A DNA stretch of 64,000 nt from contig NZ_WUYX01000071.1 in the NCBI RefSeq assembly GCF_009834785.1, forward strand, positions 124,001 to 188,000. Reading direction: 5' to 3'. Position numbers and translations under genes: made by a program. The notes beneath the pieces were generated by a model. The model was not told where the DNA came from and searched no databases. It was given only the letters and a program-made list of their open reading frames with translations. This document shows positions 24,634 through 63,302 of this stretch, in pieces. This DNA is from Natronorubrum halalkaliphilum (lineage in GTDB: Archaea; Halobacteriota; Halobacteria; Halobacteriales; Natrialbaceae). Positions within the stretch are counted from its first letter, which is position 1; every line of letters begins with the position of its first letter.

Positions 24634-24720
24634 CTCATACGGGTCACTGTAACTATGTACCGCCGATCGACGACCCCGTTCTGGCGACTGGCGGTAATTG
24701 ACTACAGTAAACCGTATCAG
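24634..24720 (-). repeat. Palindromic dispersed repeat R1, copy A
   Basis: Copy of the ~88 bp family also at 34021, 37641, 41661 and 63217. Read on the minus strand it runs from CTGATACGGTTTACTGTAGT through a GCCGATC-centred inverted repeat to CCGTATGAG. Its right end abuts and overlaps the possible upstream start of the Hsp20-like gene. The stem is less perfect than in other copies (CGATCGACG versus CTGGCGACTGG). Confidence 0.85.
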
Positions 24721-24760
24721 AGCCGCATCCGTCCCGGGCCCCGTAGCTGGTGTCGCCGTT

Positions 24761-24874
24761 CATACTGTCGGACAGAAGCCGATGAGAAGTCGGTCGCGAA
24801 TTCGCGGCCGCCCTTGGGGATGACGGCCGCAGTAGCGCGACCGATGTTCGAATAGTTCTGGCCAGCAGTATCAG
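24761..24874 (+). repeat. Palindromic dispersed repeat R2, copy 1
   Basis: About 114 bp, nearly identical to 30761-30874 over its right two thirds (shared block CGCGAATTCGCGGCCG, then GATGACGGCCGCAGTAGCGCG and TCGAATAGTTCTGGCC). The two halves are imperfect inverted repeats of each other, so it can fold into one long hairpin. Its right end (CAGTATCAG) overlaps the stop codon of the sulfatase gene that ends at 24871. It lies only 40 bp from R1 copy A. Confidence 0.85.
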
Positions 24875-26391
24875 AGATACCCCAGATCCGCCAGCCGCTC
24901 TTTCGTCCCCTCGCGCATCGCAACGTCGTCCGCCTCGTCGGCGTCCTCGAGCGGCTCGAACCGGTCCTCGAGCCGACGCCGGAGCGCCCGAACGGTCTCG
25001 GGGTTGTCGGCTGCGATATCGTCGCGTTCGTTCGGATCGACCGTCATGTCGTGGAGGCGCTCGAAGCCGTCGTCGCCGCGGACGTACTTGAACTCCCGCG
25101 TCCGAACCGCGCGAAGCCGACGGTCGTACTCGCGAACGCGATCAGGAATGTCGCCGAAACGTGCCTCGAGCCGATCGATCGAGGGCTGGGGGGCGACGTA
25201 CTCGGCGAAGACGGCGTCTCTCGAGGGCGAGGCCGAGGCCGACGTCAAATCCGGATGCATCGAGCGACTCGAGCCCTGCTCGCGAAGCGCCGGATCGTCG
25301 ATATCGACCGCTTCGAGCAGCGTCGCCGGAAGGTCGAGCAACTGGACGAGGTCGTCGCGTCGGCCGCCGCCGGTAAACGGCCCGCCGTGGAGCACCAGCG
25401 GGACGTTGATCAGCGTGTCGTAGAGGTTGTACTGGTGACCGAAGAAGCCGTGTTCGCCGATGTGCTCGCCGTGGTCGCCACAGACGACGAACAGGGTGTC
25501 TTCCCAGGCACCAGCGTCTTCGAGTGCCGATCGGAGCTGTCCGAGTTGGTCGTCGACGTACGCGAGTTCTGCCTTGTACAGGCCGCGGAGGAGCGAAAAC
25601 TCCCGTTCAGTGAGCTCGTAGTCCTCGCAGTCGTAGGCGCGAGGATCCTGTCGGATCGCCCTCGCCTCGTCGTAGCTCGCGTCGTCGGGGAGGAACCGCT
25701 CGGCGTACTCCCGCGGCGGGTCGTACTCGACGTGCGGTTCGATGAAGTTACAGAACAGGAAGAAGGGCCGGTCGGCGTCGCGCTCCTCGAGCCAGTTTGC
25801 GATCCAGGTCGTCGATCGGTCGGACCCGTCATCGCCGGCCGGCTGGAGCGCTTCACTGTAGAGGATGTTCGCGGCGTTGACCAGCGGGTTGCCGTCGAAG
25901 AGCCGGTTTCGGGTCGCCTGGAGCTTCTCCCGGAGATCCTCGCCGCGGACCACCGCGCCCATATCCGCGTCGGACTGGATATACTGCCAGCCCTTTCGAA
26001 GTTCGTCGAACCCTCGGTCGAAGCCGAACTCCTCGGTGATCCAGGTGTTGTTCGAGACGCCGATCGTCTCGTAGCCGGAGTCGGCGAACGATTCGGGAAG
26101 GGTCCGCAACTCGTCGTCGAGGTACGTGTGATCGCCGTGGGTCCCGTGTTCGGAGGGGTAGGTTCCCGTGAACATCGACGCGTGAGACGGTAGCGTCCAC
26201 GGGGCGGTCGCGAAGGCGTTGTCGAACGTCGTTCCCTCCCTCGAGAGTCGGGTCAGCGTCGGCGTCGTTTCCGGGCCGATGCTTCTCGCTCGAGCCGTGT
26301 CGAGAACAACGAGAACGACGTTCCGCGGGGTCGAATGTGGCTTCGGGTCACGCTCGTTAGACGACGAATTTGTGTTCGTAGATCCCGCCAT
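24871..26391 (-). CDS. Sulfatase/alkaline-phosphatase-superfamily hydrolase (Thr nucleophile type)
   Basis: 506 aa from the ATG at 26391 (MAGSTNTNSSSNERDP). Family marks: NVVLVVLDTARARSIG (metal Asp), the nucleophile region APWTLPSHASMFTGTYPSEHG, FLFCNFIEPHVEYDPP, and VCGDHGEHIGEHGFFGH (metal D-H). At the position of the formylglycine Cys/Ser of true sulfatases there is Thr (TLPSH instead of CxPSR). This points to a phosphotransferase or sulfatase with another mechanism, common among haloarchaeal surface-glycan clusters. The stop codon overlaps repeat R2. The gene is divergent from the Cys-type sulfatase at 26556. Confidence 0.85.
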   Translation of the reverse strand: MAGSTNTNSSSNERDPKPHSTPRNVVLVVLDTARARSIGPETTPTLTRLSREGTTFDNAFATAPWTLPSHASMFTGTYPSEHGTHGDHTYLDDELRTLPESFADSGYETIGVSNNTWITEEFGFDRGFDELRKGWQYIQSDADMGAVVRGEDLREKLQATRNRLFDGNPLVNAANILYSEALQPAGDDGSDRSTTWIANWLEERDADRPFFLFCNFIEPHVEYDPPREYAERFLPDDASYDEARAIRQDPRAYDCEDYELTEREFSLLRGLYKAELAYVDDQLGQLRSALEDAGAWEDTLFVVCGDHGEHIGEHGFFGHQYNLYDTLINVPLVLHGGPFTGGGRRDDLVQLLDLPATLLEAVDIDDPALREQGSSRSMHPDLTSASASPSRDAVFAEYVAPQPSIDRLEARFGDIPDRVREYDRRLRAVRTREFKYVRGDDGFERLHDMTVDPNERDDIAADNPETVRALRRRLEDRFEPLEDADEADDVAMREGTKERLADLGYL

Positions 26392-26555
26392 GTGTAGCAC
26401 ACATCCACCCCTCGAAGGGAAGGCCACCGCCCCGGAGTATGCAGGTGGTTCACGATATTGGAATGTGTACCGAACGGTGATAGTACGGCTCAAGAAAGGG
26501 TTCTGTGGCAGTATCAGTCCGAACTCTTACTCCCCACGTGATTCAATACGCGGAC

Positions 26556-27953
26556 ATGACGCCGCCCAATATCGTCCTGGTCCACTGCCACGATCTGGGG
26601 AAGTTCATCGGATGCTATGGCGCGGCCGTCGAGACGCCGCGGATCGACGCCCTCGCCGCCGCCGGCGTTCGGTTCGACCGTCACTTCGTGACCGCACCGC
26701 AGTGTTCGCCGAGCCGAGCGAGTCTCATGACCGGCCGCCATCCCCACCAGAACGGGATGCTCGGGCTCGCCCACGGCAACTGGGAGGTCGGCCCGGAGGA
26801 ACGACTGCTCCCCGAGTTGCTGGCCGAAACCGGCTACGAGACCCACCTCTTCGGACTCCAACACATCACCGAGTACCCCGACCGCCTCGGCTACGATCGG
26901 ATCCACAGCGACGAGCCGCTGACCGCGGACGCACCGCCGTCGGTCCACGAGACGGCCCGCGCTCGAGACGTCGCCGACGACTTCGCGGAACTGCTCGCAA
27001 CGGGCGACCACGGCGATCCGTTCTTCGCCTCGATCGGCTTCTTCGAACTCCACCGCGTCGAGGAGAACGGCGGCTTCGGCTTCGAGGGGGAGCGCTACGG
27101 CGCACCCGACCCCGGCGAGGTCGAACCGCTCGAGTTCCTCCCCGACCGGCCCGGTATCCGGTCGGATATCGCCGAGATGCACGGGATGGTGGAAGCGATC
27201 GACGACGGTGTCGGAACGATTGTCGACGCGCTCGAGGACGCCGGACTCGCCGAGGACACCCTCGTGGTCTTCACGACCGAACACGGGCTGGCCATGCCCC
27301 GAGCAAAGGGGTGTTGCTTCGACGCCGGTATCGAGGGGACGCTCGTGCTGTCCCAGCCCGGCACCGTCGAGTCGGGGCGCGCGGTCGACGACCTCGTGAG
27401 CAACGTCGACGTCTTCGCGACGCTGCTCGATGCGGCCGACGCCCCGGTTCCCGGCGCTGACGCCGACGGTGGGCACATCGCCGGCCAGAGCTTCGCCCCG
27501 CTGCTGTTCGACGGCCGCGGCGGCGAGTACGAACCACGAGAGCGGCTCTTCGCCGGCATGACCTGGCACGACCGGTACAATCCGATCCGGGCGATTCGAA
27601 CGGATCGGTGGAAGTACATCCGAAACTTCTGGCACCTGCCCGCGGTCTACATGACGACGGATATCTACTGCAGCGACGCCGGCTGCGAGGTCCGCGAGGA
27701 GTACTACGGCGACCAGCGGGCCTACGAGGAACTGTACGACCTCGAGGCCGACCCGCTCGAACGGGACAATCTCGCGGCGGCGGACGATCCCGAGGATCCG
27801 GCCACCGTAGCCGTCCGCGACCGGCTTCGAGACGAGTTACTCGAGTGGATGGACGCGACCGGGGATCCACTGCTCGAGGGACCGGTCCTGCCGAACGACT
27901 GGGAGACGGTCCATCCGCGGCTGAGCGACGACCGCAAGGACACGTGGAACTGA
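26556..27953 (+). CDS. Sulfatase, formylglycine (Cys) type
   Basis: 465 aa from MTPPNIVLVHCHDLG; an in-frame start 17 codons earlier is less likely. It has the classic CxPSR nucleophile motif, APQCSPSRASLMTGRHPHQNG, in which the Cys would be converted to formylglycine, plus FTTEHGLAMPRAKGC (metal/active-site D or E-H region) and IRAIRTDRWKYIRNF. It hydrolyses sulfate esters; substrate unknown. It is transcribed divergently from the Thr-type sulfatase with ~160 bp between starts, suggesting joint regulation. No maturation enzyme (FGE or anSME) is in the window. Confidence 0.88.
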   Translation: MTPPNIVLVHCHDLGKFIGCYGAAVETPRIDALAAAGVRFDRHFVTAPQCSPSRASLMTGRHPHQNGMLGLAHGNWEVGPEERLLPELLAETGYETHLFGLQHITEYPDRLGYDRIHSDEPLTADAPPSVHETARARDVADDFAELLATGDHGDPFFASIGFFELHRVEENGGFGFEGERYGAPDPGEVEPLEFLPDRPGIRSDIAEMHGMVEAIDDGVGTIVDALEDAGLAEDTLVVFTTEHGLAMPRAKGCCFDAGIEGTLVLSQPGTVESGRAVDDLVSNVDVFATLLDAADAPVPGADADGGHIAGQSFAPLLFDGRGGEYEPRERLFAGMTWHDRYNPIRAIRTDRWKYIRNFWHLPAVYMTTDIYCSDAGCEVREEYYGDQRAYEELYDLEADPLERDNLAAADDPEDPATVAVRDRLRDELLEWMDATGDPLLEGPVLPNDWETVHPRLSDDRKDTWN

Positions 27954-28479
27954 CCCTGGCCGCGCGGTGAAACTCTCCGAACTCCGGTCTTCATACGTTC
28001 ACGCACGGACCCGACGCCGTCTGACCGCCGTCGTGAACCGAGGCAGCCGTCTGACCGACGTCGTGAACCGAGGCAGCCGTCTGACCGACGTCGTGAACCG
28101 AGGCAGCCGTCTGACCGACGTCGTGAGCCTGGGCAGCGTCAACGCCGACCGGATGCGATACCCGTTACTCGCGTCCGCGACCTCGAGGCCCGACACGACC
28201 GATTTCCGGCGGCGGGCGAGGCCCTTGGCTCGAGAAGCGTCCGCCCGCTCTCCAGCCTCGAGGCGTCGCGGTACCGGAACGTCGTCGGCGGGAAGGAGGC
28301 GAGTCGGGCCGTCGCGGCGGCTCGCGCTCAGTTTCGGAGGCCTTCGTAACCGGTTTCGGACGTTCTGTGGCCCATCGACGGCTCCCGTAAGTTCCGACAG
28401 ACGACAGATAACGCGACGCGAGTTTCCGCGGCGACGATAGAACTATGTGTAGGTATCGCATGGCACAAACTGCATCGAT
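27954..28479. other. 525-bp gap containing a 30-bp tandem repeat
   Basis: No convincing gene. An open frame across it reads as repeats of LTDVVNRGSR and then low-quality Arg-rich sequence, with no start signal. The tandem array occupies 28021-28140. The 3' part (28430-28479) should hold the promoter of the zinc-ribbon gene at 28480. Confidence 0.55.
28021..28140. repeat. 30-bp tandem repeat, about four units
   Basis: Units at 28021, 28051, 28081 and 28111 share CTGACCGACGTCGTGAACCG followed by AGGCAGCCGT. Units 2 and 3 are identical, unit 1 differs at one base, and unit 4 diverges in its second half. Each unit contains the palindrome CGACGTCG. The 30-bp period is a multiple of three, so a frame stays open through it by default. 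Confidence 0.9.
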
Positions 28480-28764
28480 ATGAAACCGTGCCACAACTGT
28501 CAGGCGGTCATCGACGAGTATCTCTTGGATAAACAACTCGAACCCCTGCGCGAACTCACAGTCGACGACTTCAACGTCTGCGTCGACTGCGCGACCATCG
28601 TTTCCGATGCGTGCGTTGCGTGTGGCGGCGCGGTCTACGTCCCCCGGAGCGTCAGCGAGACGCCCGATTACTGTCCGGCGTGTCGATCCCGGCAGATCGA
28701 ACGCACGGGCTGTGATCCCGGCTGGAATCTCGATACATCGCAGTCCGAACGGTCCGAAGTCTGA
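28480..28764 (+). CDS. Small zinc-ribbon protein
   Basis: 94 aa. Cysteine pairs are spaced as in tandem zinc knuckles: KPCHNCQAVID, FNVCVDCATIV, DACVACGGAVYVP and DYCPACRSRQI, plus one further Cys. The first ~30 residues between pairs are helical (LLDKQLEPLRELTVDD). Likely a nucleic-acid or protein-binding ribbon protein; no named family. No membrane segment. Confidence 0.7.
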   Translation: MKPCHNCQAVIDEYLLDKQLEPLRELTVDDFNVCVDCATIVSDACVACGGAVYVPRSVSETPDYCPACRSRQIERTGCDPGWNLDTSQSERSEV

Positions 28765-28908
28765 ACGGCCGGTCTCCCGTTCAGAAACGCTATCCGAACG
28801 CTGCCCGTCAGCACACGCCGGTTGCACGACCACCGTGCCACTTTAATCGGCGTGTCTCCGATTTTGAACGAGCAGTGACGTCAGTCGCGTGCCTCTCACC
28901 GCCGGCGA

Positions 28909-29019
28909 TCAGTCGGTCACTTCCGACTCGGATCGCTCGAGATGTCCCTCGAGTGCCAGCGAGATGGCTACCGCGTCGTCCCAGCCGGAATCCGTATGGA
29001 GCAGCGCGGGGCGACTCAC
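28909..29019 (-). pseudogene. Possible N-terminal remnant of a nucleoside hydrolase
   Basis: A 36-codon frame starting at a GTG reads RPALLHTDSGWDDAVAISLA and ends at TGA. The T-D-x-G-x-D-D-A motif at its N-terminus is the calcium-binding start of inosine-uridine nucleoside hydrolases (usually DTDPGxDDA). The rest of the ~310 aa enzyme is absent on either strand nearby. It is either a degraded fragment or a chance match. Confidence 0.35.
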
Positions 29020-29104
29020 GGGTGGCTCCTCGAGGGCTTTCGGCCACAAAACGTCGGGTAGTCCATGACCGCGATCGGTTCGGCGACCGTCACGGTCCCA
29101 CCAA

Positions 29105-29112
29105 CTCTTAAC
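29105..29112 (+). promoter_or_regulatory. TATA-like box for the AhpD-like gene
   Basis: CTCTTAAC, 29 nt before the ATG at 29141. It favours that ATG over the GTG at 29123, which would lie too close to the box. Confidence 0.4.
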
Positions 29113-29140
29113 GCCGTTCGGAGTGACGGAGCAAACGGAC

Positions 29141-29494
29141 ATGACGGACGATATCGACGCCGTCGACGATCCCGAAGAAGAACTGCCGTCGACCGCCGGC
29201 GAGTTCGCCGAGTCACATCCCGAAGTCTGGGAGCAGTACGCCGATCTTGGCGCGGCCTGTGCCGACGCGGGCCCCATCGACGACGACTCGAAGCGGCTCG
29301 TTAAACTGGGGCTGGCCGTCGCCGCTCAGTCCGAGGGCGCCGTCCACTCCCACGTTCGTCGCGGCCTCGAGGAGGGCCACGACCCGGCGGCGCTCGAACA
29401 GGTCGCGATCCTCTCGATTCCGACGATCGGCTTCCCGCAGGCGATGGCCGCACGGAGTTGGATTACTGACGTCACCGACGAGGAAGCCGAGTGA
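29141..29494 (+). CDS. Carboxymuconolactone decarboxylase (AhpD-like) family protein
   Basis: 117 aa all-helical protein. The core KRLVKLGLAVAAQSEGAVHS then HVRRGLEEGHDPAALEQVAI and PTIGFPQAMAA fits the CMD/AhpD fold. The peroxidase C-x-x-C of AhpD is absent: the site reads EGAVHSH, keeping only the trailing His. So it is not an AhpD-type alkylhydroperoxidase; it resembles cysteine-less CMD proteins of unknown chemistry. It is 100 bp upstream of truA in the same direction. Confidence 0.8.
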   Translation: MTDDIDAVDDPEEELPSTAGEFAESHPEVWEQYADLGAACADAGPIDDDSKRLVKLGLAVAAQSEGAVHSHVRRGLEEGHDPAALEQVAILSIPTIGFPQAMAARSWITDVTDEEAE

Positions 29495-29593
29495 CCGTCC
29501 CGGACGCGGTATCGTCGTGACGCCGACCGGCATCACGGTCGGTACCGGTACCGTTCGACGCATCTAACTCGCTCGCCGCGTTCGGTCCAGCCA

Positions 29594-30439
29594 ATGGCAC
29601 AGCGCGCGTTCCGGATCGCCTACGACGGCACCGGCTACCACGGCTTTCAGCGCCAGCCCGACGTTTCCACCGTCGAAGACGCGGTTTTCGACGCGCTGCG
29701 CGCACTCGAGGTGCTCGCACCCGAAACCGACAAACCCGCCGCCTACGCCGCCGCCGGCCGAACCGACGCCGGCGTCTCCGCGCTGGCCCAGACGGTCGCG
29801 TTCGACGCGCCGGCGTGGCTCACGCCGCGGGCGTTCAACGCCGACCTCCCGGCCGACATCCGCGCGTGGGCGGCCGCCGACGCCCCCGAATCGTTCCACG
29901 CGACCCACGACGCGACTCGCCGGGAGTACACGTATCACCTGTACGCGCCGTCCGTCGCCGACTCGAGCGGTTCTGGTGGCGAACACGCCGTCGACGACGA
30001 CCGCTTTCGCGCCGCCTGCAAAGCGCTTTCGGGAACCCGCGACTTCCACAACCTCACGCCGGACGACCACAACACCGAACGCTCGCCGACACTCGAGGCG
30101 ACTCGCGACGGCGACTATCTCGTCGTCCGCGTCACCGCGGACGGCTTCGCTCGCGAACTGGTTCGCCGACTCGTCTCGCTCGCCCGCGCCGTCGGTACCG
30201 GCGAGGGCTCGCGTTCGAAGATCGATCGCGCGTTCGAGGCCGAGCCGTTGCCCGGCCACGAGGGAATTGCGCCCGCGCCGCCCGAACCGCTCGTACTGAC
30301 CGCCGTAGAGTATCCGAGCCTCGAGTTCGAGACGGACGAGTCGGCGGCCGAGACCGCGCGATCGATCTTCGAGCGCTACCGTAGAGACCGGCAGACGGGT
30401 GCGCGAGTCGCGAGCCAGTTGGCCGACGGTCTCGAGTGA
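29594..30439 (+). CDS. truA: tRNA pseudouridine synthase A
   Basis: 281 aa. TruA signatures: FRIAYDGTGYHGFQRQPD at the start, the catalytic Asp in AAAGRTDAGVSALAQTVAFD, and RREYTYHLYAPSV, then FARELVRRLVSLARAVGTG. It converts uridines 38-40 of the tRNA anticodon arm to pseudouridine. Length is normal for archaeal TruA. It ends ~80 bp before the small membrane protein at 30520. Confidence 0.93.
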   Translation: MAQRAFRIAYDGTGYHGFQRQPDVSTVEDAVFDALRALEVLAPETDKPAAYAAAGRTDAGVSALAQTVAFDAPAWLTPRAFNADLPADIRAWAAADAPESFHATHDATRREYTYHLYAPSVADSSGSGGEHAVDDDRFRAACKALSGTRDFHNLTPDDHNTERSPTLEATRDGDYLVVRVTADGFARELVRRLVSLARAVGTGEGSRSKIDRAFEAEPLPGHEGIAPAPPEPLVLTAVEYPSLEFETDESAAETARSIFERYRRDRQTGARVASQLADGLE

Positions 30440-30519
30440 CGTCTGTTGGCCGACGGTCTCGAGCGATCGATCGATTGCGTTGGGAGTCCTTTTTACGGCC
30501 GGGCGCGACACCTCGGAGC

Positions 30520-30762
30520 ATGGAACTGTCGCCTGAAGAGTACGGTGCCTACTGGCGGGCCTCGATCTTCGTCGCAGCGGGCGTCCTCATCGTCTCCCTC
30601 GGCTATCGTGTCACGTCACCGTTGCTCTCGCATCCGAACGCCGGAGCGATCGGACTCGGGATCTTTCTGCTCGTCGCGGTCGTCTTCGCGGGCACGTTCG
30701 TCGCGATGCTCGGCATCGCTCGCACCGTTCGGACGGCCGTCGACGCCGAGATGCGCGGTTGA
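30520..30762 (+). CDS. Small two-helix membrane protein
   Basis: 80 aa from MELSPEEYGAYWRA; a T-rich box (CTTTTTACGG) ~28 nt upstream supports this start. Hydrophobic segments at about residues 15-33 and 45-70. Its TGA stop coincides with the left end of repeat R2 copy 2 (GGTTGATACTGG), so insertion of that element may have set or preserved the stop. No family recognised. Confidence 0.6.
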   Translation: MELSPEEYGAYWRASIFVAAGVLIVSLGYRVTSPLLSHPNAGAIGLGIFLLVAVVFAGTFVAMLGIARTVRTAVDAEMRG

Positions 30763-30874
30763 TACTGGCAGACGAAAGTCAATACGAAGTCTGTCGCGAA
30801 TTCGCGGCCGTCCTCGGGGATGACGGCCGCAGTAGCGCGACCGATCTTCGAATAGTTCTGGCCGGCAGTATGAG
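30761..30874 (+). repeat. Palindromic dispersed repeat R2, copy 2
   Basis: 114 bp, matches 24761-24874. Ends are GATACTGGCAGAC on the left and GCCGGCAGTATGAG on the right, which are imperfect inverted repeats; the similarity between arms continues to the centre (CTCGGGGAT). Left end overlaps the TGA of the gene at 30520; the right end lies just before the NifU-like gene. Confidence 0.88.
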
Positions 30875-30920
30875 TCGGGTTACCGACCCGCAGTCTGCGC
30901 TCTACCGGTTCGTGAACAGA

Positions 30921-30927
30921 GATATAC
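30921..30927 (+). promoter_or_regulatory. TATA box for the NifU-like gene
   Basis: GATATAC, about 24 nt before the ATG at 30951. It lies outside repeat R2, so the gene keeps its own promoter. Confidence 0.55.
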
Positions 30928-30950
30928 CCCTCGAGTCCCTTGGCTTACCT

Positions 30951-31271
30951 ATGAGCGAATCCGCCCCAGAGCAGTCCCCCGAGGACGAAATTCGAGAAGC
31001 AGTGTCCCTGTTCCTCCAGCGGAACTTCCCCCAGATTCAGGCCCACGGCGGCGACTCGTCGATCACCGAGGTCGATCTAGACGAGGGCCGCATCTCGATC
31101 AACCTGAGCGGTGCCTGTAGCGGGTGTGGCATCAGCCCGATGACGACCCAGGCGATTCAGCGACGGCTCCCGAACGAGGTCGACGCGATCGATCACGTCT
31201 CGGTCAGCACCGGTTTCGACGGCCTCTCGGAGGGGACGTCTCGCGATATCTCGGACGACGTTCCCTTCTGA
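30951..31271 (+). CDS. NifU C-terminal-domain (Nfu-type) Fe-S scaffold protein
   Basis: 106 aa. It consists of the Nfu domain: EIREAVSLFLQRNFPQIQAH, GGDSSITEVDLDEGRI and the cluster-binding CSGCGISPMTTQAIQ (C-x-x-C). Nfu proteins hold and deliver [4Fe-4S] clusters to enzymes such as aconitase. The frame is open upstream through R2, but the TATA box and ATG at 30951 define the start. It is convergent with the PAS kinase gene (12 bp between stops). Confidence 0.88.
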   Translation: MSESAPEQSPEDEIREAVSLFLQRNFPQIQAHGGDSSITEVDLDEGRISINLSGACSGCGISPMTTQAIQRRLPNEVDAIDHVSVSTGFDGLSEGTSRDISDDVPF

Positions 31272-31283
31272 GCGCCACAGCGG

Positions 31284-33983
31284 CTACGCACTCCCGTCGT
31301 GATCGGCCGCCGGCAGCGTCACCGAAAACGTCGCTCCCTCACCGGGCTCGGAGTCGACCCAGATTTCGCCGCCGTGACGTTCGACGATTCGACGACAGAG
31401 TGCGAGCCCGATTCCGGTTCCGCTGTATTCCTCCCGGCTGTGGAGCCGCTGGAAGACCTCGAAGATCCGCTCGCTCTCGTCGGGCTCGAGACCGATCCCC
31501 TCGTCGCTGACCGACACGATCCACTCTCTGCCGTTCCGTTCGGCCGAGACGTGAACGCGCGGCGTTCCGTCGCTGTATTCGATCCCGTTCGAGAGCAGGT
31601 TCTGGAACACCTGTCGAAGCTGGCTCGCGTCGCCGTTGACCGTCGGCAGTGGCTCGGTCGTGATCTCGGCTTCGGTTTCGACGATTTTCACCTCGAGATC
31701 CGCCAGAACGTCCTCGAGCACGCTGTTCAGGTCGACTGGTTCGAACGGATCGCCCCGCGTTTCGACGCGGGAGTACTCGAGGAGTCCCTCGATCATCGCC
31801 CGCATTCGCTCGGCCCCATCGACGGCGTACGCGAGGAACTCCTCGCCGTCGTCGTCCAACTGATCGCCGTAGCGGCGATCGATCAACTGGAGGTAGCTCG
31901 AGACCATCCGCAACGGCTCCTGGAGGTCGTGGCTGGCGGCGTACGCGAACTGTTCGAGCCGCTCGGTCTCGGCCTGTAGCTCGTCGATGTACTCCCGGCG
32001 TTCGAAGTAAAACTTGACCAGGGTCGCGAGCGTTTCGATCAGTTCGTGCTCTTCCTCGAGGAACGGGCCCGTCTCCGTCTCGGTAGCGTCCGCGAGGAAG
32101 ACGACGTCGATCGTGACCGGCGCACCGTTTGCCGTTCTGGTGTGTGCCGTGATGTTCCGATCAATGGGTTCGTAGCCGTCGGTGACTGCCTCGTGGTTAC
32201 CGACCGAGACCCGCGCGGCGGTGCGCTCCGCGTATCGAAACGAGTCCGTGAGGTTATCCACGAACGCCTCCAGTAACTCGTCGACCGGTTGATCGCCGCT
32301 TTCGAGCAAGTTCGTTGCGAGCCGAACGGCGGCGAGTTCCTTTTCGCGCTCCTCGAGCGCTCGTTTTCGCCGTTCGGCGAGCTCTTTCAGATCGGTGATA
32401 TCGGTCGCGGTCGCGACGACCTGTTCCGGCGCTCCCCGCTCGTCGGTAATCGGCGTGGCGTTTACGGAAAGCCACGTCCGCTCTCCGGACGGCGGATCGA
32501 TCAGAATTTCCCGATCGTACAGCGGGTTTCCCGTCTCGAAGACGCGGCTGGTGGGCCGGTCTTCGACCGGAATCAGATCTCCGTTCGAATCGAACATCTC
32601 TCGGTCTCCCGTCGTGTACGGCGAAATGTCGCCCGACGGAACGTCGAGCAGTTTCGCCATCCGATCGTTGACTCGGCTGGTCGAGCCGTCCGGATTCACG
32701 ACGGCGATACCGACCGGACTGGTCTCCAGGATCTGTTCGGTCAGGTTCCGTTCGCGTCGCAGCTCCCGTTCGTGCTCTCGCTGCTCGGTCATGTCCCGCG
32801 ACACCTTCGCGAACCCCTGTAGCTCACCCTCGTTTCGAATAGCGGTAATCGTCACGTTGGCCCAGAACTGCGATCCGTCCGCCCGGACGCGCCACCCTTC
32901 GTCCTCGATTGCACCCTGGGTTCTCGCCTGCGTGAGATTGTGTTCGGGCACGCCGTTTTCCCGGGCGTCGTCGGTGTAGAACACCGAAAAGTGCTCGCCG
33001 AGAATCCGTTCCGAATCGTACCCTTTGATCCGTTCGGCACCTTCGTTCCAGCTGACGACGTGCCCGTCGGGATCGAGCATGAAAATTGCATACTCCTCGA
33101 CCGCATTGACTAACGACTGAATCCGTTGTTCGCTCTCGAGTTGGGCTTGCTCCGACAGTTTCCGGTCCGTGATGTCGTAGTACAGTTCGACGCGACCGCC
33201 GGCGTACCGTCCGGATTCGATCGGCTTGCTCCGGTGCTCGAGCCAGCGTTCCTCGCGCCCCTCGCCGGATGTGATCCGACACTCGAACTGTTCGACGTAG
33301 GTGTTGTCGTCGTAGGTCGCCACCACCGTCTCCGCAAACGCCTCTGGGTCGGCAAATCGGTCCTGAATCGTTTCTTCGATGACCGTCTGCTTGTCCCGGC
33401 CGACGATTTCGCTCCGATCCACGCCGAAGTACCGTTCGATGGTCTCGTCGATCCAGGCGACGTCGAACGTTTCGTCGAGAACGAACACGCCGACGTCGGC
33501 CTCGTCGATGACGGACGTGATCGATTCGTACGTCTCCCAGACCGATGCGAGCTGCTCGTGCCGCCGGTCGCGACCGTCGATGGTGCGAACGACGCCGACG
33601 GTTCCCACGAACTCGTCGTCGGCCACGAGCAGGCTAAACTGCAACTCGCAGGGAACGCGCTCGCCGTCGACGGTCTCGATCGCCAAATCGTACGTCGCGT
33701 CGCCGTCCGCGTCGCTCTCGAGTCGGGTTCGGATGCGGCGCTCGAGACGGTCGCAATCCGCGTCGCTGACGACGACGGAAACGTGCGCACCGAGGAGCGT
33801 CTCCCGGTCGTACCCTGTCAACTCGAGGATCACGTCGTTGACCGCGACGAAGCACCCGTCAGTGTCGAGCTGGTAGACGCCGTCTTCGAGGGTTTCGACG
33901 AGCGTCCGGTACCGACGATGCACCACCTCATCGCCGTCGTCCGCCTGAGAGTTCGACCCTTTTGCGTCCCCCAGATCACTCAT
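31284..33983 (-). CDS. Multi-PAS sensor histidine kinase
   Basis: 899 aa from MSDLGDAKGSNSQADD; a possible longer start at 34025 lies in repeat R1. Order: PAS ~25-140 (LETLEDGVYQLDTDG region), PAS ~150-270, PAS ~285-400 (AEEYAIFMLDPDG-like), PAS ~415-530, a GAF-like segment ~550-650, HisKA ~660-725 with the phosphoacceptor His in ASHDLQEPLRMVSSYL, and HATPase ~765-890 (N box FQNLLSNGIEYSDG, G1 VSDEGIGLEPDESERIF, G2 YSGTGIGLALCRRIVERHGG). No membrane helices, so a cytosolic sensor, probably redox or light/energy taxis. No receiver partner is adjacent. A TTTAAC box ~30 nt upstream of 33983 supports that start. Confidence 0.9.
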   Translation of the reverse strand: MSDLGDAKGSNSQADDGDEVVHRRYRTLVETLEDGVYQLDTDGCFVAVNDVILELTGYDRETLLGAHVSVVVSDADCDRLERRIRTRLESDADGDATYDLAIETVDGERVPCELQFSLLVADDEFVGTVGVVRTIDGRDRRHEQLASVWETYESITSVIDEADVGVFVLDETFDVAWIDETIERYFGVDRSEIVGRDKQTVIEETIQDRFADPEAFAETVVATYDDNTYVEQFECRITSGEGREERWLEHRSKPIESGRYAGGRVELYYDITDRKLSEQAQLESEQRIQSLVNAVEEYAIFMLDPDGHVVSWNEGAERIKGYDSERILGEHFSVFYTDDARENGVPEHNLTQARTQGAIEDEGWRVRADGSQFWANVTITAIRNEGELQGFAKVSRDMTEQREHERELRRERNLTEQILETSPVGIAVVNPDGSTSRVNDRMAKLLDVPSGDISPYTTGDREMFDSNGDLIPVEDRPTSRVFETGNPLYDREILIDPPSGERTWLSVNATPITDERGAPEQVVATATDITDLKELAERRKRALEEREKELAAVRLATNLLESGDQPVDELLEAFVDNLTDSFRYAERTAARVSVGNHEAVTDGYEPIDRNITAHTRTANGAPVTIDVVFLADATETETGPFLEEEHELIETLATLVKFYFERREYIDELQAETERLEQFAYAASHDLQEPLRMVSSYLQLIDRRYGDQLDDDGEEFLAYAVDGAERMRAMIEGLLEYSRVETRGDPFEPVDLNSVLEDVLADLEVKIVETEAEITTEPLPTVNGDASQLRQVFQNLLSNGIEYSDGTPRVHVSAERNGREWIVSVSDEGIGLEPDESERIFEVFQRLHSREEYSGTGIGLALCRRIVERHGGEIWVDSEPGEGATFSVTLPAADHDGSA

Positions 33984-34020
33984 TGGGTATCCAAGTCCGC
34001 AATCGCAGTTAAACCCTTGT

Positions 34021-34108
34021 CTCATACGGATTGCTGTAACTAGTTACCGCCGATCACCAGGGGCGGGGTCGATGATCGGCGGTCATTGACTACAGTAAAC
34101 CGTATCAG
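34021..34108 (-). repeat. Palindromic dispersed repeat R1, copy B
   Basis: 88 bp, with arms GTAACTAGTTACCGCCGATC and GATCGGCGGTCATTGACTAC flanking a short centre. Its right end (CCGTATGAGACAAGG on the minus strand) lies ~40 bp upstream of the kinase start and supplies an in-frame ATG. It is an inverted partner to copy C; together they bracket pepF and the M28 peptidase. Confidence 0.9.
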
Positions 34109-34184
34109 TCATCCCGGATCCGCTCTTGCGCAACACTCGTGTCGCACGTCAAAATAGGACAGTACCGACTCAAGCGCCGCTGCC

Positions 34185-35996
34185 CTAGTCGAGCAACTCG
34201 TCCATCTCGTCGAGTCGCTGTCCGTACATCTCCAGCGCCCGATCGATCGGGTCCGAACTGCTCATATCGACGCCGGCGATCCGCAGCAGTTCGAGCGGGT
34301 ACTCCCGGGAACCACGCCGGAGGAACGAGCGGTAGTCTTCGGCGGCGTCACGGTTCGGTTCGCTGCCGGGCCCGTTCGGCAGGACGTCGTCGACGATAGC
34401 CAGCGCGGCGGAGATACCGGTCGCGTACTGGTAGACGTAGAACGCGCGGTAGAAGTGGGGGATGCGCATCCATTCGCGGGCGATGTGGTCGTCGACGACG
34501 GCGGGTTCGTAGTACTCCTCTTTGAGCCCGCGGTAGAGTTCGTCCAGTCGGTCGGCGGTGAGCGGTTCGCCCGCCTCCTCGAGTTCGTGAGCCTTGTGCT
34601 CGAACTCCGCAAAGAGCGTCTGTCGGTAGAGCGTCGAACGCACGCGCTCTAAGAACTCGTTCAGGACGTGTTTGCGGAACTCGGGGTCGTCGACGGTCTC
34701 GAGCAGGTGGTTCGTCAGCAGGGCCTCGTTGACCGTACTGGCGACTTCGGCCACGAAGATTTCGTAGCCCGAGTAGACGTAGGGCTGTTCTTCTTTCGTG
34801 AGCTCGGAGTGCATCGAGTGGCCGAGTTCGTGGGCCAGCGTGTACATCGAGGAGATGTCGTCCTGATAGTTCATCAGGATGAACGGCTGGGTGTCGTAGG
34901 TGCCCCCCGAGTACGCGCCGGACTGCTTGCCCTCGTTCTCATAGACGTCGACCCAGCGCGACTCGAGGCCCTCGGCGACGCGGGACTGGTAGTCCTCGCC
35001 CAGCGGAGCCAGCGAGTCGACGACGTACTCGGCCGCCTGATCGTACTCGACGTCGGGGCCCTCATCGCCGGTCAGCGGCATGTAGACGTCCCACATCTGG
35101 AGGTCGTCGACTTCGAGTGCTTGCCGTTTGAGCTCGGCGTGGTGGTGAAGCTTGTCGAGGTTGTCGTGAACGCTGTTGACGAGCGTGTCGTAGACGTCAA
35201 CGGGGACGTTGGGCCCGTCGAGGGCGGCCTCGCGGGCGGTGTCGTAGTTGCGCGCCTGCGCCATCTTGACGTCAGCTTTGACGCTGTTCTTGTAGGCAGA
35301 GGCAACGGTGTTCCGCATCGATTGCCACTCGTCGAAGTAGTTCTCGTAGACGCGCTGGCGGAACGCCCGGTCGGGGCGTTTGAGCAGGTTGACGAAGTTA
35401 CTCTGCGTGATTTCGACGGCTTCCCCCTCAGGATCTTCGACCGTCGGGAACTGCATGTCCGCGTTCGAGAGCATGTTGTACACGTCGCCGGTCGCGCCCG
35501 TGACCTCGCTCAGGTCCGCGAGCAGTTCCTCGACTTCCGCCGAGCGGGTGTGGGGTTTCATCCGGAGGACGTCGTCGACGTAATGGTCGTAGGTCTCGAG
35601 GGCCGGTTCCTCGTCTACCATCTCGTCGAACTCCTCGCGGGTCAGCTCCTGAATTTCGGGGTCGATGAACGACGTTGCGGATTGGGCGTCGGCCGCGAGC
35701 GACTGGGCGCGGGCCGTCAGCGCCTGATACTCCTGGTTCGTCGTATCTTCGTCGCGGCGCATCCGGGCGTAGGCCGAGACCGTCGACACCTCGCGCATGA
35801 TCTCCTCGCTCAGTTCGAGGACCTCGAGCAGGGTGTCCGCGTCGTCGGTGACCTGCCCCTCGTAGGCGTCGAGTTCGTCGACGCGTTCGGCGACTGCTTC
35901 GTAGGCGGCCTCCCAGTCGTCGTCGGTTGCGTAGATGCTCTCGAGATCCCAGGTATATTCTTCGTCGACCTCCGAGCGTTCGGGAACGGAACTCAT
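34185..35996 (-). CDS. pepF: Oligoendopeptidase F (M3B)
   Basis: 603 aa from MSSVPERSEVDEEYTWDLES. The zinc site is LAHELGHSMHSELTKEE (HExxH) with the downstream E in IFVAEVASTVNEALL. M3 substrate-binding segments PHFYRAFYVYQYATGISAAL and GSREYPLELLRIAGVDM are present. It cuts oligopeptides of roughly 7-17 residues in the cytosol. The open frame continues ~94 codons upstream but is unlike the family. It is divergent from the M28 peptidase at 36155. Confidence 0.94.
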   Translation of the reverse strand: MSSVPERSEVDEEYTWDLESIYATDDDWEAAYEAVAERVDELDAYEGQVTDDADTLLEVLELSEEIMREVSTVSAYARMRRDEDTTNQEYQALTARAQSLAADAQSATSFIDPEIQELTREEFDEMVDEEPALETYDHYVDDVLRMKPHTRSAEVEELLADLSEVTGATGDVYNMLSNADMQFPTVEDPEGEAVEITQSNFVNLLKRPDRAFRQRVYENYFDEWQSMRNTVASAYKNSVKADVKMAQARNYDTAREAALDGPNVPVDVYDTLVNSVHDNLDKLHHHAELKRQALEVDDLQMWDVYMPLTGDEGPDVEYDQAAEYVVDSLAPLGEDYQSRVAEGLESRWVDVYENEGKQSGAYSGGTYDTQPFILMNYQDDISSMYTLAHELGHSMHSELTKEEQPYVYSGYEIFVAEVASTVNEALLTNHLLETVDDPEFRKHVLNEFLERVRSTLYRQTLFAEFEHKAHELEEAGEPLTADRLDELYRGLKEEYYEPAVVDDHIAREWMRIPHFYRAFYVYQYATGISAALAIVDDVLPNGPGSEPNRDAAEDYRSFLRRGSREYPLELLRIAGVDMSSSDPIDRALEMYGQRLDEMDELLD

Positions 35997-36122
35997 ACCC
36001 CGCGTTTTGAAACGAAGGTGGTAAAGGGTATCGAACCCGGAGACGGAGCGGGGCGCACCGCACTGAGAAGCGACCCGCCGTTCGGTCGACCGACACGTCC
36101 GGCCCGGCTTCAGCCGACCAGT

Positions 36123-36130
36123 AGAATATT
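36123..36130 (+). promoter_or_regulatory. TATA box for the M28 peptidase gene
   Basis: AGAATATT, 24 nt before the ATG at 36155. A separate TTTACC box on the other strand near 36028 suits pepF, so the two divergent genes seem to have separate promoters. Confidence 0.5.
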
Positions 36131-36154
36131 CCGCTCGAGCGTGAACACCGTGGT

Positions 36155-37609
36155 ATGGTCGAGACGGACATCGGCGACGAGCGACTCGAGCGCGCGCTCG
36201 GTCGCGCCTGGAGCGACGACCGGCCCTGGGAACTGCTAACACGGATAACCGAGTTGCCCCACCGAATGGGCGGCTCACCGAACGAACGGCGAGCGGCCGA
36301 AACCGTTCGGGAGACGTTTTCGAACGCCGGTCTCGAGAACGTCCAGTTTCAGGAGTACCCCGTGCAGTACTGGGAGCGAGGGACGACGGAGTTCGCAGTC
36401 ATCGGAAGCGAAACGTCGACGCGAGGGGGCGAGGATAGCGCTTCGGAGACGACACCGAACGCCAACGAAGATACGGCGGCGAACGACGACTTCGGCGGCA
36501 TCGACCGCTCGTTCGAGGCGATCGCCCTGCCGTACTCGCCGGCGGGCGACGTCGAGGGACCGCTGGTCGACGTCGGCTACGGCACCCCCGCGGAACTCGA
36601 GGACGTCGATCTCCAGGGAGCGATCGCGGTCGCGAGTACGACGACCCCGTCGGGTCAGCGGTTCGTCCACCGGATGGAGAAGTTCGGTCACGCGATCGCG
36701 GCGGGCGCGGAGGCGTTCGTTTTCGCCAATCACGTGAAGGGGCAACTCCCTCCGACGGGTGCGCTGAAGTTCGACGCCGAGGCGGCCGTCCCCGGCGTCG
36801 GCGTCAGCGCCGAGACCCACGACTGGCTGACGGAGTACGCCGACCGCGGCGCTCGAGCGCGGCTTCGGGTCGATGCGACGACTCAGGACGGCTCGAGTCA
36901 GAACGTCCACGGCACGCTCGGGCCGGATACGGACGACGAAGTCCTCGTCGTGGCCCACTACGACGCCCACGACATCACGGAGGGGGCCCTCGACAACGGC
37001 TGTGGCATCGCCACCGTCGCCGGCGCGGCGTCGATTTTGTCGGCGATCAACGAGGACCTCGAGTGTCGAGTACGACTCGCCGGCGTCGGCTGCGAGGAGA
37101 TCGGCTTGCTGGGTGCCAGAGCGATGGCCGAGTCGGTAGATCTCGACGACGTTCGAGCGGTGGTTAACGTCGACGGCGCGGGGCGATTTCGCAACCTTCG
37201 AGCGTTCTCACACGGCTCCGACCCGCTCGCAGAACTGGCCGATACGGTGACCGAAGCGGCGGGGCAGCCGGTCGTCCACGAGCCGGATCCGCATCCGTTC
37301 AGCGACCACTGGCCGTTCCTGCAGGCGGGCGTGCCGGCGCTGCAGTTACACAGCGAGCCGCCGGAGGGTGCCGAACGAGGCCGCGGTTGGGGACACACGA
37401 CGGCGGACACGCGAGATAAGGTCGATCCCCGAAACCTGCGCGAGCACGCCATGCTGACGGCGCTGCTGGTTCGGGAGCTAACTCGGACTGACGTTCCCCG
37501 GATCGACGCTGACGAACTTCGCGAGCAGTTGCGAGCACAGGAGTACGAGCCGGGAATGCGCGCCGCCGAAATCTGGCCCGACTCGTGGGGCGAGTCGATC
37601 GACGGCTGA
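36155..37609 (+). CDS. M28-family zinc aminopeptidase with PA domain
   Basis: 484 aa. Residues ~115-225 form a protease-associated insert. The zinc ligands of M28 follow: H and D in VVAHYDAHDITEGALDNGCG, the EE pair in GVGCEEIGLLGARAMA, D in VNVDGAGRFRNLR, and a late His in GWGHTTADTRDKVDP. An acidic Ser/Thr/Glu insert sits at ~85-110. No signal peptide, so probably cytosolic peptide trimming. With PepF, M42 (12286) and PAN it supports a peptide-recycling function for this region. Confidence 0.88.
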   Translation: MVETDIGDERLERALGRAWSDDRPWELLTRITELPHRMGGSPNERRAAETVRETFSNAGLENVQFQEYPVQYWERGTTEFAVIGSETSTRGGEDSASETTPNANEDTAANDDFGGIDRSFEAIALPYSPAGDVEGPLVDVGYGTPAELEDVDLQGAIAVASTTTPSGQRFVHRMEKFGHAIAAGAEAFVFANHVKGQLPPTGALKFDAEAAVPGVGVSAETHDWLTEYADRGARARLRVDATTQDGSSQNVHGTLGPDTDDEVLVVAHYDAHDITEGALDNGCGIATVAGAASILSAINEDLECRVRLAGVGCEEIGLLGARAMAESVDLDDVRAVVNVDGAGRFRNLRAFSHGSDPLAELADTVTEAAGQPVVHEPDPHPFSDHWPFLQAGVPALQLHSEPPEGAERGRGWGHTTADTRDKVDPRNLREHAMLTALLVRELTRTDVPRIDADELREQLRAQEYEPGMRAAEIWPDSWGESIDG

Positions 37610-37640
37610 ACGACCGCGGCGCGAATCGCGCGACCGAACT

Positions 37641-37728
37641 CTGATACGGTTTACTGTAGTCAATGACCGCCGATCACCGACCCCATCCCTGGTGATCGGC
37701 GGTAACTAGTTACAGCAATCCGTATGAT
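37641..37728 (+). repeat. Palindromic dispersed repeat R1, copy C
   Basis: 88 bp with the clearest stem: ACCGCCGATCACC and GGTGATCGGCGGT are perfect inverted repeats around GACCCCATCCCT, extended by CTGATACGGTTTACTGTAGT and TTACAGCAATCCGTATGAT. The terminal ATG at 37724 is in frame with PAN 57 codons downstream, although PAN has its own promoter and start. Confidence 0.92.
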
Positions 37729-41660: not shown

Positions 41661-41748
41661 CTGATACGGTTTACTGTAATCAATGACCGCCGATCACCAG
41701 AGCCGGGGTCGGTGATCAGCGGTAAATAGTTACAGCAATCGGTATAGG
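41661..41748 (+). repeat. Palindromic dispersed repeat R1, copy D
   Basis: Same family as copies A-C and E, with several mismatches at its right end (GGTATAGG in place of CGTATGAG). It is the only copy inside the AT-rich island, ~200 bp from its right direct repeat. Confidence 0.88.
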
Positions 41749-63216: not shown

Positions 63217-63302
63217 TGGTACGGTTTACTGTAGTCAATTACCGCCGATCGCCGACCCCGTTCTGGCGATCGGCAGTAAATAGTTACAGCAATCCGTATG
63301 AG
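63217..63302 (+). repeat. Palindromic dispersed repeat R1, copy E
   Basis: 86 bp: GGTTTACTGTAGTCAATTAC, CGCCGATCGCC / GGCGATCGGC stem, then TAGTTACAGCAATCCGTATG. It differs from the others by a modified left end (TGGTACGG). It lies between convergent or unrelated small genes. Confidence 0.9.

What the first reader, a model, noticed from the sequence alone, without database searches (positions are those of the whole stretch)
24871..37726. Palindromic elements sit exactly at gene ends and supply stop or start codons
R2 ends overlap the TGA stop of the sulfatase (stop at 24871-24873) and of the small membrane protein (stop at 30760-30762): both read TGATAC at the join. R1 right ends supply an ATG in frame with the downstream gene for the Hsp20-like gene (24638), the PAS kinase (34025) and PAN (37724). 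Four or five such coincidences in seven copies look more than random and suggest that targets are chosen near gene boundaries, or that insertions elsewhere are removed.
Basis: partly seen in the sequence, partly recalled or inferred. Interest (0 to 1): 0.65.

Follow-up and report, generated by a model that had tools for sequence, protein, structure and literature searches.

The report
Miniature transposons landing in stop codons
Short palindromic jumping elements in a salt-loving archaeon insert at the motif CT(G/C)AG and copy its central three bases, which are a stop codon on one strand, so a jump into a gene's stop codon leaves the gene intact; about four in ten copies sit exactly there.

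Summary
The window comes from a haloarchaeon, probably Natronorubrum. R1 (about 80 bp, TACGG...CCGTA) and R2 (about 108 bp, TACTG...CAGTA) are non-autonomous miniature transposons (MITEs). Both make a 3-bp target duplication, almost always TGA or its complement TCA, at target CTSAG. The stop was the target and was duplicated, not supplied by the element: orthologues lacking the element end at the same residue.

Survey: 43 of 102 copies have a duplication arm that is the stop codon of an adjacent gene (R1 32/62, R2 11/40), against about 15% expected from target preference plus absence from coding DNA. No copy lies inside a called gene. Another genus gives 19/65 versus 12% expected. Occupancy of ideal CTSAG sites falls steadily: stop codon 20%, 3' flank up to 60 bp 11.5%, 3' 61-150 bp 6.5%, 5' flank 3.6%, coding 0 of 873.

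Target preference plus purifying selection therefore explains most of the pattern. The start-codon claim fails: the ATGs exist (last element base plus TG of TGA), but PAN and the PAS kinase start downstream, and no gene call starts there. The mobilising transposase was not found. Window copies alone (2 of 7) were not significant.

The parts
24638..24716 (-). R1 copy (79 bp), TSD TCA at 24635-24637 and 24717-24719; intergenic, not at a stop
24763..24870 (-). R2 copy (108 bp) inserted in the sulfatase stop codon; TSD TCA at 24760-24762 and 24871-24873
   Evidence: orthologues in 11 relatives end at the same residue
24871..24873 (-). TGA stop codon of the sulfatase = inner arm of the R2 target-site duplication
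24871..26175 (-). sulfatase gene (stop certain, start approximate)
30520..30762 (+). small membrane protein gene, ends ...DAEMRG*
30760..30762 (+). TGA stop codon of the membrane protein = inner arm of the R2 target-site duplication
30763..30870 (-). R2 copy (108 bp) inserted in that stop codon; outer TSD arm TGA at 30871-30873
34025..34104 (-). R1 copy (80 bp), TSD TCA at 34022-34024 and 34105-34107, between PAS kinase and peptidase genes
37645..37724 (+). R1 copy (80 bp), TSD TGA at 37642-37644 and 37725-37727, upstream of PAN; its ATG is not the PAN start
41665..41744 (+). R1 copy with decayed outer flank (TGA left, TAG right)
63220..63298 (+). R1 copy with one decayed TSD arm (TGG / TGA)

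Best explanation
R1 and R2 are MITEs moved in trans by an unidentified transposase. It recognises their TAC(G/T)G inverted ends, prefers the 5-bp target CTSAG and duplicates the central TSA (ends, target and duplication are shown by sequence; the transposase is inferred). Every TNA trinucleotide is a stop codon (TGA or TAA) on one strand, and TSA is TGA. A jump into a CTGAG stop codon therefore gives TGA-element-TGA: the gene keeps its stop and its full length (shown at 12 further loci and the sulfatase by orthologues). The accumulated pattern (stop codon > 3' flank > 5' flank > coding) then follows from that target preference plus removal of harmful insertions (selection is inferred). No sensing of gene ends is needed. 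Any effect of the hairpin that now abuts the stop codon on translation or mRNA 3' ends is untested.
For: TSD: 36 of 53 close end pairs carry the same trinucleotide outside, 35 of them TNA; 83 of 111 after boundary fitting: TCA 40, TGA 37, TAA 4, TTA 2; 49 of 65 in G021, all TCA or TGA. Target: CTGAG stops occupied 13/64, CTGA-not-G 6/183, notC-TGAG 2/112, neither 0/189. Enrichment: 43/102 at stops versus 6.5% (any TNA) or 15% (target-weighted) expected, p about 1e-10 for the weighted null; G021 19/65 versus 12%, p = 2e-4. Gradient in two genomes, 0/873 in coding. Unchanged C-termini. A filled site in G005 versus an empty one in G003 at the folD-like stop shows TGA[R1]TGA-GACGCGG versus TGA-GACGCGG. 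The same transporter stop codon holds R1 here and an R2-like element in G003, so the two families share a target rule.
Against: No autonomous partner with these ends was found. R1 alone is still 2.5 times denser per site at stops than in the first 60 bp downstream (p = 0.006); pooled over both families and genomes this difference is not significant (p = 0.24). Selection is inferred from absence in genes, not observed. Genes were called with a home-made codon-usage finder. R2 enrichment alone is marginal under the weighted null (p = 0.035).
Confidence: 0.85

Rival explanations
1. The transposition machinery actively finds gene ends (for example through terminating RNA polymerase or the terminating ribosome), in addition to the CTSAG preference.
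For: R1 stop-codon density exceeds the immediate 3' flank per CTSAG site (32 vs 10 observed, expected share 0.56, p = 0.006); neighbours past stop-inserted copies are convergent in 23 of 42 cases versus 396 of 1027 of all 3' ends.
Against: R2 shows no such excess (10 of 19, p = 0.7); pooled occupancy 20% vs 11.5% is not significant (p = 0.24); the smooth gradient fits tolerance.
Confidence: 0.12
2. Elements truncate genes and provide a new stop codon.
For: Stop codons do lie at the element edge.
Against: The stop is in the duplicated target, hence older than the insertion; orthologues end at the same residue in 18 of 20 comparisons and for the sulfatase in all 11 relatives; no well-supported gene call ends inside an element.
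Confidence: 0.02
3. Element ends serve as start codons for downstream genes.
For: ATG formed by the last element base and TSD TGA is in an open frame at 24638, 34025 and 37724.
Against: PAN and PAS kinase start downstream in relatives; no gene call in 102 copies starts at the ATG; ATG there is a by-product of TSD TGA.
Confidence: 0.03
4. The elements are kept at stop codons because the hairpin is useful to the host as a terminator or 3' mRNA stabiliser.
For: R1 folds at -40.8 kcal/mol (z -6.9), with the stem reaching the TGA; REPs within 15 nt of a stop are reported to lower translation in E. coli (PMC12306157).
Against: Patchy presence among congeners and element-free orthologous 3' ends argue against a needed role; no expression data.
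Confidence: 0.15

Closest known systems
Prokaryotic MITEs in general (review PMC10969869), e.g. Correia/NEMIS, RUP, QMITE2, MITEAba12
   Same: Short, multicopy, non-coding, terminal inverted repeats, target-site duplication, strong hairpin, mostly intergenic (QMITE2 mainly in 3' UTRs)
   Different: 3-bp TSA duplication at CTSAG that coincides with the stop codon; about 40% of copies exactly in stop codons; no parent IS found
Haloquadratum walsbyi MITEs and SMR-A repeats (PMC3119063)
   Same: Haloarchaeal, about 80-110 bp, prominent inverted repeats, unknown mobiliser for SMR
   Different: SMR-A make no target duplication and target PATE/IS605 elements; R1/R2 duplicate 3 bp and target CTSAG
IS1031 subgroup of IS5 and PIF/Harbinger-Tourist elements (from family knowledge)
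   Same: 3-bp TNA-type duplication
   Different: Different ends; no DDE_Tnp_4 match; DDE_Tnp_1 elements with resolved ends here have 6-10 bp duplications
Bacterial REP elements (PMC12306157, PMC3733652)
   Same: Palindromes often close downstream of stop codons
   Different: REPs are 20-40 bp; R1/R2 are longer, with transposon-like ends and a 3-bp target duplication

Membership tests
MITE | Short (<500 bp), multicopy, dispersed | tested here: met
   79-81 bp and 107-108 bp for typical copies; 57 good copies in 1.165 Mb
MITE | Terminal inverted repeats | tested here: met
   TACGG...CCGTA and TACTG...CAGTA
MITE | Target-site duplication on insertion | tested here: met
   83 of 111 copies, 3 bp TNA; filled/empty pair
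MITE | Autonomous element with matching ends and duplication | tested here: inconclusive
   None in 1.7 Mb scanned nor at the DDE_Tnp_1 loci read; other transposase families not searched; the draft assembly may lack it
IS5/IS1031-derived | TNA 3-bp duplication | tested here: met
IS5/IS1031-derived | Relative with matching transposase and ends | tested here: not met
   DDE_Tnp_1 loci read lack TAC ends with a matching 3-bp duplication; PF13586 absent in 7 genomes
PIF/Harbinger-Tourist | DDE_Tnp_4 transposase in the genome | tested here: not met
   No PF13359 match in 7 genomes
SMR-A (Haloquadratum) | No target duplication, targets PATE/IS605 | tested here: not met
   3-bp duplication present; 43 of 102 copies in stop codons of genes
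REP/BIME | 20-40 bp palindrome | tested here: not met
   80 and 108 bp with transposon-like ends

The most novel reading that the evidence does not exclude
A transposon lineage whose target specificity has been selected to coincide with the host's commonest stop codon, so that the 3-bp duplication rebuilds the stop: a sequence-only safe-harbour strategy in which the genetic code itself supplies a few hundred landing sites per genome, possibly helped by coupling to termination.
Probability: 0.2. Interest if true: 0.8.

Novelty: new variant of a known kind. Interest (0 to 1): 0.62.

Why it matters
It gives a simple, testable rule for how an element can fill a gene-dense genome without breaking genes: pick a target whose duplicated core is a stop codon. 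About a fifth of ideal CTGAG stop codons in the sampled sequence are already occupied. It also warns annotators that ATGs at the edges of these elements are by-products of the target duplication, not starts. I found no description of stop-codon insertion by MITEs in the open-access library searched, which does not cover most subscription journals.

Tried and rejected
Start-codon supply by R1: rejected. TA target duplication as for IS630-type MITEs: rejected, since the identical trinucleotide lies outside the TA and empty sites lack TA. Autonomous partner by paired inverted ends with matching duplication in 1.7 Mb: only composites of two short copies or chance pairs. DDE_Tnp_1 loci in seven genomes: elements with resolved ends have 6-10 bp duplications and other ends. 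PF13586 and PF13359: no matches. Plasmid and phage collections: only unannotated copies in Natronorubrum bangense plasmids, none in phages.

Full report
What the elements are. The window lies on contig C46 of a 4.56 Mb haloarchaeal draft genome. R1 matches Natronorubrum bangense plasmids, and the coordinates of those matches equal those of congener G006, so the genus is probably Natronorubrum. Oriented copies of R1 show that the three bases outside the inverted ends are the same on both sides as a direct repeat: TGA|TACGG...CCGTA|TGA, TCA|...|TCA, TTA|...|TTA, TAA|...|TAA. Pairing ends without rewarding a duplication gave identical trinucleotides in 36 of 53 close pairs (TCA 17, TGA 16, one each of TTA, TAA, CGA). 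After boundary fitting 83 of 111 copies carry the duplication: TCA 40, TGA 37, TAA 4, TTA 2; the fitting step favours duplications, so one search is the unbiased figure. R2 has different inner sequence but the same rule. The elements therefore run from TAC to GTA, about 80 bp (R1) and 108 bp (R2), and TGA/TCA belongs to the target.

The stop codons. In the window the sulfatase stop 24871-24873 and the membrane-protein stop 30760-30762 are the inner arms of R2 duplications. An in-frame TGA in a duplicated target must have been a stop before the insertion, so the element does not supply it. This was checked with relatives: sulfatase orthologues from 11 genomes end at the same residue (...ADLGYL*), and in the two most similar ones the sequence after the stop resembles ours after the second TGA (TGA-(A/G)CGGCG). 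For 12 other stop-inserted genes, 18 of 20 orthologous 3' ends in three congeners stop at the same codon. At one transporter gene our genome has R1 in the stop codon, relative G003 has an R2-like element with TGA/TGA in the same stop codon, and G009 is empty. At a folD-like gene G005 (filled) and G003 (empty) give a clean pair, TGA[R1]TGA-GACGCGG against TGA-GACGCGG.

How often. A codon-usage gene finder was trained on five contigs (1.165 Mb, a quarter of the genome). Of 102 good copies, including loci from other contigs, 43 have the duplication arm exactly equal to the stop codon of an adjacent gene: R1 32 of 62, R2 11 of 40; none lies inside a called gene. Restricted to the five contigs the figure is 24 of 57. 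The expected share, if insertions are limited to non-coding DNA plus stop codons, is 6.5% for any TNA site and 15% when weighted by the target preference of the copies that are not at stops; p is about 1e-10 for all copies and 1e-6 for the five contigs. R1 carries most of this; R2 alone is marginal (p = 0.035). In G021, a genome of another genus, 19 of 65 copies are at stops against 12% expected, p = 2e-4. In the window alone, 2 of 7 is not significant (P = 0.28).

Why. The target core is CTSAG. Among stop codons in the five contigs, 13 of 64 in CTGAG context are occupied, 6 of 183 with only the C, 2 of 112 with only the G, 0 of 189 with neither. Occupancy of CTSAG sites with intact duplication, pooled over both genomes, is 20.3% at stops, 11.5% within 60 bp 3' of a gene, 6.5% at 61-150 bp, 3.6% within 100 bp upstream of a start, 2.6% elsewhere between genes and 0 of 873 in coding sequence; both genomes show the same trend separately. 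This is what target preference plus removal of harmful insertions predicts. An extra preference for stops over the immediate 3' flank is seen for R1 (p = 0.006) but not R2, and is not significant when pooled (p = 0.24), so active recognition of gene ends is possible but not needed.

Starts. ATG at the element edge is the last A of GTA plus TG of TGA. PAN orthologues share a start 57 codons further in, and one (G005) has no start codon between that point and an in-frame stop 22 codons upstream; the PAS kinase in three relatives has in-frame stops 6 to 9 codons upstream of its conserved start. Over 102 copies seven such ATGs are in an open frame with a downstream gene, and none is the called start. 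The three window examples are three of those seven.

Open points. No transposase with these ends was found, although PF01609 was read only at a subset of loci and other transposase families were not searched. Selection is inferred. R1 RNA would form a hairpin of -40.8 kcal/mol whose stem reaches the TGA; REPs within 15 nt of a stop are reported to lower translation in E. coli (PMC12306157), so an effect on the host gene is plausible but untested. Membership: these meet the MITE definition by size, ends, duplication and copy number; the parent IS test is inconclusive, so they are not filed under any IS family.

Noticed in passing
L141-L168 (G021), e.g. G021:C1:447991-448151, 795521-795681, 917556-917718: Copies stand side by side and share one duplication arm (TGA-R1-TGA-R1-TGA): new elements insert into the duplicated arm of older ones.
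   Followed up: partly
L236 (G003:C1:1717300-1718100) and C60:110263-110343 of G000: The same transporter stop codon carries R1 in the window's genome and an R2-like element in a congener: independent hits on one stop codon.
   Followed up: yes
C46:195715-195794, C60:105740-105819 and similar copies: A third, more divergent subfamily (TACGGTCTGCTGTAC... ends) follows the same TGA/TCA duplication rule.
   Followed up: partly
L037 and L039: R1 nested inside R2 (L037) and R1 abutting R2 with a shared TGA (L039).
   Followed up: no
L029:485-1584: Two R1 copies in the same orientation with matching TCA flanks bracket a gene, a possible composite unit.
   Followed up: no
window 28016-28135: Four tandem copies of a 30-bp unit (GCCGTCTGACCGACGTCGTGAACCGAGGCA).
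   Followed up: no
relatives G001-G009: R1 is patchy within the genus: dozens of matches in G002, G006, G007 and G008, none or almost none in G001, G003, G004 and G009.
   Followed up: no
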